Source: an uncultured bacterium (GTDB lineage Bacteria; Calescibacteriota; Calescibacteriia; Calescibacteriales; Calescibacteriaceae). From it: a DNA stretch of 47,373 nt. The notes beneath the pieces are model-generated. The model was given only the letters and a program-made list of their open reading frames with translations. It was not told where the DNA came from and searched no databases. Below are positions 17,421-19,071 of the stretch, piece after piece. The translations under genes were made by a program, and so were the position numbers. The stretch covers positions 1 to 47,373 of the forward strand of contig CALHPK010000019.1 of assembly GCA_938036315.1 (NCBI GenBank), in the 5' to 3' direction. How positions within the stretch are numbered: position 1 is the stretch's first letter; the number at the start of each line of letters is the position of its first letter.

Positions 17421-17717
17421 ATGAGAAGAACGAAAAAAAAGATTCTCAGGATTCCCACATTCTTTACTATCCTACCAGCACTCGCATGCTTACTTTCAAC
17501 ATACCTTCTCCTATCTGACGGAGGAATCTTCACCCTGGTAGCCCAAAAAAGGGAAATAGAAAACCTTAAAAAAAAGATAGAAAAGATAGATGTAGAAAGC
17601 AAAGAAATCGAATACAGAATAGAACTTATCAAAAAACAAGATGAGAAATATCTTGATTACATATTCAGAAAATTTGGATGGGTCAAAAAAGATGAGAAAG
17701 TACTGAAGCTTGAATAA
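17421..17717 (+). CDS. FtsB/DivIC-like septum formation initiator
   Basis: Small bitopic membrane protein (98 aa). A basic N-terminus (RRTKKK) is followed by one transmembrane helix at about 14-31 and a coiled coil (EIENLKKKIEKIDVESKEIE). The end (YLDYIFRKFGWVKKDEKV) matches the FtsB/DivIC pattern, in which residues such as a-R-xx-G-w/y follow the coil. These proteins form the FtsQ-FtsB-FtsL division complex. It sits 48 nt after korB on the same strand. Its 3' end overlaps the convergent ATPase gene by 35 nt. Confidence 0.78.
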   Translation: MRRTKKKILRIPTFFTILPALACLLSTYLLLSDGGIFTLVAQKREIENLKKKIEKIDVESKEIEYRIELIKKQDEKYLDYIFRKFGWVKKDEKVLKLE

Positions 17718-18540
17718 TATTCATCTGTTTACCAATAAAGTCCGCATCTATTCCTTCGATAGAAAAAGGTATTTTTATTACACCTGGGAAGATAGATTTG
17801 TAAAGTTTCAAAAATTTTGAAGAGTTCAGGGAGAAAAAAGTATCAAAGTTGTAAAGATTTATGAGTTCTTCCTTTTCTTTTGCAGATAGCTTTCCCTCCG
17901 TAAGGATTCTATCAATCCACAATTCATCCTCGCGACTGAGATTTTTTTCATAGAATTTATTGAGAACAAGGGCGGAAATTTCCAAACCTTCCTGTTTCAT
18001 TTTCTGGATGGCTTCTGCTGTCTCCTCATATGATAAATACTCTGGTATACAGACAAGGATAATTTTGAGTTTTTTCACAAACTCGGCCATCTTCTCAAGG
18101 TCGGATTTAGCAAATCCCCCAACTCCGGAATCGAGCGCTGAAAATGGTATTTTCAAAAGAGGGATTATCTGTCCAACTGGTGGGGCATCGAAAACATAAA
18201 ATTGGTATCTTCCCAAATAGTGATCGTACCACATCCTACCGAGAAAAATAAGCTCCCTGAAACCTGGGATGACCCTTGAGAAGACTCTGAAAACATCGGA
18301 TCTTGTTAATGCCCAGGAAAGGATGAAAAATCTGAGCTTAAGTTTTACATACTCTTTAGCTTCTTTTTCATAATCTAACGGATACAGGATAACATTCTTT
18401 GAGACGAATTTGTATATAGGGGATGGATTTTTTGAATCGTAATACAGTATGGTTGTGCCTTTTTGTGATAGGGTATTGGCAAGCAGACAGCTTAGTAGGC
18501 TTTTACCAACTCCCCCCTTTCCTGTGGCCACGAAGAACAA
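17683..18540 (-). CDS. P-loop ATPase of the MinD/ParA/ArsA class
   Basis: Soluble ATPase (285 aa) with the deviant Walker A motif GKGGVGKS at residues 7-14. The switch region YVFDAPPVGQ contains the Walker-B-like aspartate. ALVLNKFY supplies the N-K base-recognition signature. Between them is an ArsA-like insertion rich in aromatics. It could be an ArsA/Get3-type targeting ATPase or a cell-positioning ATPase; I cannot decide. The start is constrained because GKGGVGKS must lie near the N-terminus. The ATG lies 7 nt after the CCA end of the tRNA-Arg gene, so no room exists for a ribosome site outside the tRNA. Confidence 0.8.
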   Translation of the reverse strand: MFFVATGKGGVGKSLLSCLLANTLSQKGTTILYYDSKNPSPIYKFVSKNVILYPLDYEKEAKEYVKLKLRFFILSWALTRSDVFRVFSRVIPGFRELIFLGRMWYDHYLGRYQFYVFDAPPVGQIIPLLKIPFSALDSGVGGFAKSDLEKMAEFVKKLKIILVCIPEYLSYEETAEAIQKMKQEGLEISALVLNKFYEKNLSREDELWIDRILTEGKLSAKEKEELINLYNFDTFFSLNSSKFLKLYKSIFPGVIKIPFSIEGIDADFIGKQMNIIQASVLSHLF

Positions 18541-18547
18541 GATTTTG

Positions 18548-18622
18548 TGGAGCGCCTGGCGGGATTCGAACCCGCGACCTCTGGGTCCGCAACCCAGCGT
18601 TCTTCCTCTGAACTACAGGCGC
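18548..18622 (-). tRNA. tRNA-Arg (anticodon GCG)
   Basis: Complete cloverleaf on the minus strand, 75 nt including an encoded CCA. The acceptor stem GCGCCTG/CAGGCGC is fully paired, followed by TA at positions 8-9. The D-stem is GTTC/GAAC. The anticodon stem CTGGG/CCCAG encloses loop TTGCGGA, with the anticodon at 18588-18590. The variable loop is AGGTC, and the T-arm is GCGGG-TTCGAAT-CCCGC. GCG reads CGC and CGU arginine codons. The discriminator base is U73, unusual for Arg. It starts 1 nt after the stop of the DUF35 gene and ends 7 nt before the ATPase ATG. Confidence 0.95.
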
Positions 18623-18623
18623 C

Positions 18624-19037
18624 CTATTTCCTCTTCACAAACTTGTGAAGAATTATCCCCCCATCCACCTCCACAAAATCAAGCTCCACCTTATCTCCTA
18701 TCTTCAAATCCTCCCCTTCGATCTTGGTCAGAATTCTACCAACACCCTCGATCTCCACAAAACCTATCACATCTGGGTAAGTAAACCTCAATGCCCTCTT
18801 CTGATTAGTGAAAGAGTAAATCCTCCCACTTTTCGGAACATCAACCCATACTAAATTTTCAGAGTAACAGAGTGGGCAAAATCTCCGCGGGGGAAACTGA
18901 ATCACTCCGCAACTTTGACACTTGGGAATTTTAAATTCTCTGTTCTGCAGGAATGAATAAAACTTTTCAGCGGCAGAATCTCCGTAATGCTTTATCCCTT
19001 CTTTAGTGGCTCTGCCTATAACTTGGCGGATATCCAT
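18624..19037 (-). CDS. DUF35 zinc-ribbon/OB-fold protein
   Basis: Small two-domain protein (137 aa). An N-terminal helix is followed by a rubredoxin-like zinc ribbon with CQSC and CPLC pairs (KIPKCQSCGVIQFPPRRFCP). A C-terminal OB-fold begins near SGRIYSFTNQK. This is the DUF35 family, which often forms complexes with thiolases or HMG-CoA synthase-like enzymes and channels acyl-CoA. No thiolase gene is adjacent here. The gene lies in the minus-strand run permease, DUF35, tRNA-Arg, ATPase, with only 1 nt to the tRNA. Confidence 0.85.
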   Translation of the reverse strand: MDIRQVIGRATKEGIKHYGDSAAEKFYSFLQNREFKIPKCQSCGVIQFPPRRFCPLCYSENLVWVDVPKSGRIYSFTNQKRALRFTYPDVIGFVEIEGVGRILTKIEGEDLKIGDKVELDFVEVDGGIILHKFVKRK

Positions 19038-19071
19038 AGTTCAATTATAAAAAGGAAAAACAGAACTTTTC

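What the first reader, a model, noticed from the sequence alone, without database searches (positions are those of the whole stretch)
18536..18626. tRNA wedged between two protein genes; ATPase nearly leaderless after processing
The tRNA begins 1 nt after the DUF35 stop and its CCA ends 7 nt before the ATPase ATG. If the tRNA is excised from the shared transcript, the ATPase message would have a 7-nt leader without a ribosome site. Thus tRNA processing could switch the ATPase between two modes of translation, or separate DUF35 and ATPase expression.
Basis: partly seen in the sequence, partly recalled or inferred. Interest (0 to 1): 0.6.

Follow-up and report, generated by a model that had tools for sequence, protein, structure and literature searches.

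The report
tRNA genes lead protein genes genome-wide
In this uncultured hot-spring bacterium and its relatives, about half of all tRNA genes sit a nearly fixed 7-13 bases in front of a protein gene that has no ribosome-binding site, so messages for essential proteins probably begin where a tRNA is cut off, an arrangement known from mitochondria but that I did not find described for bacteria.

Summary
The junction is real, with one correction. tRNA-Arg(GCG) starts 1 nt after the DUF35 stop, and its CCA ends 7 nt before the ATPase start, which is TTG, not ATG. DUF35 is incidental: its orthologs lie elsewhere in all four relatives. The tRNA-ATPase pair is kept in all five genomes of the family (Calescibacterium relatives).

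The site is one case of a genome-wide pattern. In this genome 23 of 44 tRNAs have the start codon of a long ORF 7-13 nt after the discriminator base. Two relatives give 24/46 and 15/45. Random expectation is about 2, and three unrelated small genomes give 1/54. The same tRNA-gene pairs recur (26-28 of 39-42 anticodons) while upstream neighbours do not (5-7). Spacing is the same with or without encoded CCA, and the gap holds no Shine-Dalgarno or promoter. Partners include MreB, a release factor, DnaX, PRPP synthetase, SecE and HslV; HslV's mature N-terminus fixes its TTG start. An unrelated bacterial family shows the same layout with other partners (DnaA, TopA).

Best explanation: tRNA promoters drive tRNA-mRNA transcripts, and 3' cleavage of the tRNA releases nearly leaderless mRNAs. 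Layout shown; cleavage and translation mode inferred. The proposed regulatory switch is untested.

The parts
18624..19037 (-). DUF35 / ChsH2-like OB-fold protein (137 aa); upstream neighbour only in this genome
   Evidence: Pfam zf-ChsH2 and OB_ChsH2_C; orthologs at other places in G001-G004
19044..19049 (-). TATAAT 6 nt before the DUF35 ATG: -10 box placed as for a leaderless mRNA
   Evidence: read from sequence; not in the consensus scan, which needs a -35 match; inferred
18548..18622 (-). tRNA-Arg(GCG) with encoded CCA
   Evidence: ARAGORN, Rfam tRNA model 73.1 bits; same tRNA before the same gene in four relatives
18541..18547 (-). 7-nt gap CAAAATC between CCA and start codon (10 nt from discriminator to start); no Shine-Dalgarno
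   Evidence: sequence; orthologous gaps 14, 15, 15 and 32 nt from the discriminator
17683..18540 (-). ArsA/MinD-like P-loop ATPase (285 aa), TTG start, motif GKGGVGKS
   Evidence: Pfam ArsA_ATPase 1.4e-16, CbiA 2.5e-10; orthologs 51-53% identical in all four relatives

Best explanation
The junction is one unit of a genome-wide architecture that can be called tRNA-led genes. A tRNA, usually with its own promoter, is transcribed together with a protein gene that starts about 9-10 nt after the discriminator base. The tRNA is cut out of the joint transcript (RNase P at its 5' end, a 3' endonuclease at its 3' end). This leaves an mRNA with a leader of about 0-10 nt and no Shine-Dalgarno, which is translated by leaderless or short-leader initiation; some first genes of transcripts in this organism also appear to be leaderless. 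Shown here: the architecture, its fixed spacing, its conservation, the lack of a Shine-Dalgarno or promoter in the gap, and that the partners include essential-type genes. Inferred: co-transcription, cleavage at the tRNA 3' end, and leaderless-type initiation.
For: Spacing: 23/44 (G000), 24/46 (G002) and 15/45 (G004) tRNAs have a start codon of a >=90-aa ORF at 7-13 nt, against a random mean of 1.5-2.0 with maximum 7 in 500 draws and 1/54 in three unrelated small genomes run through the same pipeline. Pairing: same-anticodon tRNAs keep the same downstream gene in 28/42, 26/39 and 28/41 cases between genomes, the same upstream neighbour in only 6, 5 and 7. Start codons are real: HslV begins TTG-ACA-ACA, giving Met then the mature catalytic Thr1 that starts PDB 1m4y; N-termini agree between genomes. 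No promoter in the tRNA: 1 of 68. -10-like hexamers gather 10-14 nt before tRNA 5' ends, most clearly in G000 and G004. Leaderless precedent: -10-like hexamers 4-9 nt before the start in 9 of 78 G000 genes not led by a tRNA, e.g. TATAAT-6-ATG before DUF35. Essential-type partners: MreB, release factor, DnaX, PRPP synthetase, SecE, thioredoxin. RNase P RNA is present in all five genomes.
Against: No RNA data. No canonical RNase Z passes its cut-off in any of the five genomes (the best hit is a PDEase_II/Lactamase_B_2 protein), so the 3' nuclease is unknown, although the assemblies are only 82-86% complete. Spacing is the same whether or not CCA is encoded (median 10 and 10, p = 0.73), which a nuclease cutting after the discriminator in one class and after CCA in the other would not give if leader length were the constraint. 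Starts at 0-6 nt are nearly absent, though a truly leaderless system could use them. The ATPase itself is not the tightest case (32 nt in G002).
Confidence: 0.6

Rival explanations
1. The tRNA is not cut off before translation. The folded tRNA at the 5' side acts as part of the ribosome-binding element: its acceptor helix ends where a Shine-Dalgarno helix would end, and the ribosome initiates on the uncut tRNA-mRNA. Cleavage would then end translation, so tRNA supply and protein synthesis would compete.
For: Discriminator-to-start distance peaks at 8-10 nt, the same place as Shine-Dalgarno 5-mers of other genes in this genome (7-11 nt). Spacing ignores encoded CCA, so it is measured from the tRNA body. 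Starts at 0-6 nt are nearly absent. Gaps hold only 6% G, so little chance of pairing to rRNA or to the tRNA.
Against: No bacterial precedent known to me. tRNA processing is normally fast (general knowledge). Near-leaderless mRNA explains the upper limit equally well.
Confidence: 0.17
2. Plain operon compaction: tRNAs happen to lie in tight gene clusters, and the short gaps carry no special function.
For: Compact genomes often have short gaps; tRNA-Trp-secE order is well known in bacteria (general knowledge; seen here).
Against: Tightness is one-sided: same-strand ORF stops lie within 15 nt of only 3 of 44 tRNA 5' ends in G000, against 23 of 44 starts just after the 3' end. Spacing peaks at 8-10 nt rather than decaying from 0. 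Three other small genomes do not show it. Pairs are kept while upstream neighbours change.
Confidence: 0.08
3. The true starts lie further inside the ORFs, each with its own ribosome site, and the near starts are chance openings of the reading frame.
For: Reading frames often run open through GC-rich tRNA sequence; the ATPase frame is open 24 codons upstream of the TTG.
Against: HslV start is fixed by its mature Thr1. N-termini of thioredoxin, PRPP synthetase, DnaX, ferritin and the ATPase align between genomes from the near start. Random positions give about 2 such starts.
Confidence: 0.03
4. An internal promoter in each tRNA gives a separate leaderless mRNA for the protein gene.
For: Leaderless-type promoters appear to be used by some genes here.
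Against: Only 1 of 68 tRNA-led genes has a -10-like hexamer at the needed place, which falls in the GC-rich acceptor strand.
Confidence: 0.04
5. One reading: tRNA processing is a regulated switch between Shine-Dalgarno-free and another mode of translation, separating DUF35 from ATPase expression.
For: The DUF35 stop ends 1 nt before the tRNA, so 5' processing would trim the DUF35 message right at its stop.
Against: DUF35 is not upstream of the tRNA in any relative; no alternative ribosome site exists for a second mode; no evidence of regulation.
Confidence: 0.05

Closest known systems
tRNA punctuation of mitochondrial transcripts (Ojala, Montoya, Attardi 1981; cited in PMC10941002)
   Same: tRNAs lie between protein genes with almost no spacer; their excision would set the ends of mRNAs; the mRNAs would have few or no 5' untranslated bases
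   Different: Free-living bacterium; most tRNAs seem to have their own promoter; mostly only the gene 3' of the tRNA is tight, not the one 5'; the start sits at a fixed 8-12 nt rather than at the very cut; most genes in the genome are not tRNA-led
Bacterial leaderless mRNAs, e.g. Deinococcus-Thermus with the -10 box next to the ORF (PMC12340547) and mycobacteria (PMC4633059)
   Same: No Shine-Dalgarno, start codon at or near the mRNA 5' end; the same -10 placement is seen before some genes here, such as DUF35
   Different: For tRNA-led genes the short leader would come from tRNA processing, not from the transcription start
Ordinary bacterial tRNA-mRNA operons (tRNA-Trp-secE-nusG, tRNA-Thr-tufB; general knowledge)
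   Same: A tRNA is co-transcribed with a downstream protein gene
   Different: Those are isolated cases and, as far as I know, the downstream gene has room for its own ribosome site; here about half of all tRNAs are involved, with a fixed gap too short for one
Dicistronic tRNA-mRNA transcripts in plants (PMC8166872)
   Same: A tRNA and an mRNA on one transcript
   Different: Nuclear plant transcripts linked to RNA mobility; no fixed short gap in a bacterial genome

Membership tests
Mitochondrial-type tRNA punctuation | tRNA genes directly adjoin protein genes throughout the genome | tested here: met
   23/44, 24/46 and 15/45 tRNAs have a start 7-13 nt after the discriminator, against 1/54 in control genomes
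Mitochondrial-type tRNA punctuation | tRNAs adjoin the mRNAs on both sides | tested here: not met
   same-strand ORF stops within 15 nt of the tRNA 5' end for only 3 of 44 in G000
Mitochondrial-type tRNA punctuation | mRNA ends are made by RNase P and RNase Z cleavage | not testable with these tools
   needs RNA ends; RNase P RNA present, canonical RNase Z not found above cut-off
Bacterial leaderless mRNA | no Shine-Dalgarno before the start codon | tested here: met
   one Shine-Dalgarno-like hit among all gaps, in an 18-nt gap
Bacterial leaderless mRNA | 5' end of the mRNA within about 5 nt of the start codon | not testable with these tools
   no RNA data; a cut after the discriminator would leave about 9-10 nt, after CCA about 6-7 nt
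Bacterial leaderless mRNA | -10 box about 6-7 nt before the start codon | tested here: not met
   1 of 68 tRNA-led genes
Ordinary tRNA-mRNA operon | downstream gene has its own Shine-Dalgarno | tested here: not met
   gaps of 7-13 nt without one
ArsA/MinD-type P-loop ATPase (the local gene) | deviant Walker A motif GKGGxGK[ST] and ArsA/CbiA fold | tested here: met
   GKGGVGKS; Pfam ArsA_ATPase 61 bits, CbiA 40.8 bits, both above cut-off

The most novel reading that the evidence does not exclude
In these bacteria the tRNA body itself acts as a ribosome-landing structure. Its acceptor stem takes the place of the Shine-Dalgarno helix at 8-10 nt from the start codon, so each tRNA precursor is also a translation leader, and tRNA maturation competes with synthesis of the linked protein (DnaX, MreB, release factor and others). 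This would tie essential protein output to the maturation of each tRNA.
Probability: 0.15. Interest if true: 0.95.

Novelty: new variant of a known kind. Interest (0 to 1): 0.8.

Why it matters
If RNA mapping confirms it, a bacterial family makes messages for essential proteins by cutting tRNAs off their 5' ends, a layout otherwise known from mitochondria. A second unrelated bacterial family with different partner genes suggests it arose more than once or is being reshuffled. It would make testable how ribosomes start on messages with about 6-10 unpaired bases and no ribosome site, which nuclease frees tRNA 3' ends where canonical RNase Z was not found, and whether tRNA maturation limits expression of the linked genes. 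It also has a practical side: gene finders that require a ribosome site could misplace these starts.

Tried and rejected
DUF35 as part of the unit: rejected, its orthologs are elsewhere in all four relatives. Promoter inside the tRNA: rejected. Misplaced starts: rejected by HslV Thr1 and conserved N-termini. Chance or compaction: rejected by random draws, one-sidedness and control genomes. Loss of RNA-based RNase P as in Aquifex: rejected, RNase P RNA is present in all five genomes. The metallo-beta-lactamase hit as RNase Z: below cut-off, and Pfam places it equally with class II phosphodiesterases and Lactamase_B_2, so left open. Genes close behind RNase P RNA as another processed RNA: one start at 60 nt in five genomes, nothing comparable. 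Unpaired probability around the starts (mean 0.55) had no control and is not used. Naming the second lineage (G093/G361, family f90) was not possible. Literature searches for tRNA-led or punctuated bacterial genes gave no match; the library lacks most subscription papers.

Full report
What was checked. The window holds one tRNA, tRNA-Arg(GCG) on the minus strand at 18622-18548 with an encoded CCA. Reading the minus strand, the DUF35 stop TAG (18626-18624) is followed by one base and then the tRNA; the CCA is followed by CAAAATC and then TTG at 18540. The gene encodes an ArsA/MinD-like P-loop ATPase, and the upstream gene is a ChsH2-type (DUF35) protein.

Where it comes from. The ATPase has relatives at 51-53% identity in four genomes of the same family. 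The window is therefore from a relative of Calescibacterium (once called Calescamantes). It is a metagenome-type assembly, 1.87 Mb in 32 contigs, about 85% complete.

The pair is conserved, the upstream gene is not. In all four relatives the same tRNA-Arg(GCG) lies directly before the ATPase. From discriminator base to start codon the gaps are 10 (window), 15, 15, 14 and 32 nt (read), with no Shine-Dalgarno. In G001 and G003 a TATAAT-like box lies shortly before the tRNA. DUF35 has clear orthologs in all four relatives but at other places. So the unit is tRNA plus ATPase; DUF35 before it is a local accident.

The pattern is genome-wide. I took the DNA around all 44 tRNA genes of this genome and asked what follows each one. 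Start codons of long ORFs pile up 8-12 nt after the discriminator base. By a fixed rule (start of an ORF of at least 90 aa at 7-13 nt), 23 of 44 tRNAs qualify here, 24 of 46 in G002 and 15 of 45 in G004. Random positions on the same strand give 1.5-2.0 on average and never more than 7 in 500 draws, and neighbouring 7-nt bins hold 0-5. Three unrelated small bacterial genomes run through the same pipeline give 1 of 54. A pattern survey of 386 genomes gives ATG at 7-12 nt versus a far control of 15/5, 11/3, 20/6, 11/3 and 8/6 in the family; by eye most other genomes show about equal counts.

The pairs are old and specific. Between genomes, tRNAs with the same anticodon keep the same downstream gene in 28 of 42, 26 of 39 and 28 of 41 cases, but share an upstream neighbour in only 6, 5 and 7 (an earlier version, agrees). 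Examples are Val-TAC with a PfkB kinase, Asp with HslV, Thr-GGT with MreB, Cys with a peptide release factor, Gln-TTG with PRPP synthetase, Ser-CGA with DnaX, Pro-GGG with thioredoxin, Trp with SecE and Glu-CTC with a ferritin-like protein. Several of these are usually essential in bacteria, so translation from this position must work well.

The starts are right. HslV begins TTG ACA ACA (or synonymous codons) in all three genomes, which gives Met followed by the catalytic Thr that is residue 1 of mature HslV in PDB 1m4y. N-termini of several other partners agree between genomes although start codons vary among ATG, GTG and TTG.

What fixes the distance. Gaps differ in sequence and hold only 6% G. 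Encoded CCA is gained and lost between orthologs, yet the distance from the discriminator stays the same (median 10 with CCA, n = 38; median 10 without, n = 40; p = 0.73). So the distance is counted from the tRNA body. Shine-Dalgarno motifs of other genes here end at a similar distance (peak 8-10 nt) from their starts. The organism seems to use both Shine-Dalgarno sites and leaderless-type starts with a -10 box 4-9 nt before the start codon, such as TATAAT-6-ATG before DUF35, although most genes in that crude count fit neither class.

How it most likely works. No promoter fits in the gap or in the 3' part of the tRNA (1 of 68), and -10-like boxes gather 10-14 nt before tRNA 5' ends, most clearly in G000 and G004. 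The genes must therefore be read through the tRNA. RNase P RNA is present. The simplest course is that the tRNA is cut out and leaves an mRNA with about 6-10 leader bases, translated like a leaderless message. The 3' nuclease is unknown: a curated RNase Z model finds only weak metallo-beta-lactamase hits in all five incomplete genomes (and for the best one). A different bacterium reported to lack an obvious RNase Z, Propionibacterium acnes, has unusual tRNA 3' processing (PMC3848588). Not excluded is that the uncut tRNA helps place the ribosome; the fixed distance, equal to the Shine-Dalgarno distance, and the lack of starts at 0-6 nt are reasons to test this.

A second lineage. Family f90 (G093, G361; not named by the tools) stood out in the survey with 21/5 and 16/3. 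Of 29 G093 tRNAs examined, 13 have a start at 7-13 nt. Its partners include DnaA, TopA, transketolase, uracil phosphoribosyltransferase, signal peptidase II and uroporphyrinogen decarboxylase, and none is shared with the Calescibacterium relatives for the same anticodon.

Prior knowledge. Mitochondrial tRNA punctuation is the nearest known system (cited in PMC10941002); leaderless genes with an adjacent -10 box are described for Deinococcus-Thermus (PMC12340547). No paper found describes systematic tRNA-led genes in bacteria, and the text of a Calescamantes genome paper mentions tRNA only through tRNA synthetases. The library is open-access only, so absence is weak evidence.

Limits. No RNA data; assemblies 82-86% complete; ORFs were called by simple rules; the pattern survey uses ATG only. 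The architecture is firmly supported; the mechanism is inference.

Noticed in passing
L028 (G000 C2:9493-11269) and L183 (G004 C2): tRNA-Met, a 246-aa gene, tRNA-Val(GAC) and an ABC transporter gene alternate; the 246-aa gene ends with the TAG formed by bases 8-10 of tRNA-Val, so cutting out the tRNA would remove its stop codon. The overlap is kept in both genera.
   Followed up: partly
G002 C49:99915-100506 (L169, L095): RNase P RNA lies about 60 nt before tRNA-Asp, which leads hslV; in G000 RNase P RNA is elsewhere.
   Followed up: no
window 17683-17717: The ATPase gene and a DivIC/FtsB-like gene (17421-17717, plus strand) overlap tail to tail by 35 bases.
   Followed up: no
window 18633-18650: Perfect inverted repeat CTTCACAAGTTTGTGAAG in the last codons of DUF35, just before the tRNA; no T run, so not a typical terminator; could be chance.
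   Followed up: no
G000:C2:31936-32331 and orthologs L162-L166: No protein passes the RNase Z cut-off in five genomes; a conserved 256-275-aa metallo-beta-lactamase protein of PDEase_II/Lactamase_B_2 type is the best hit.
   Followed up: partly
survey genomes G010, G033, G173: Also show more ATG at 7-12 nt after tRNA T-arms than in the far control (18/7, 18/7, 12/2); not examined.
   Followed up: no
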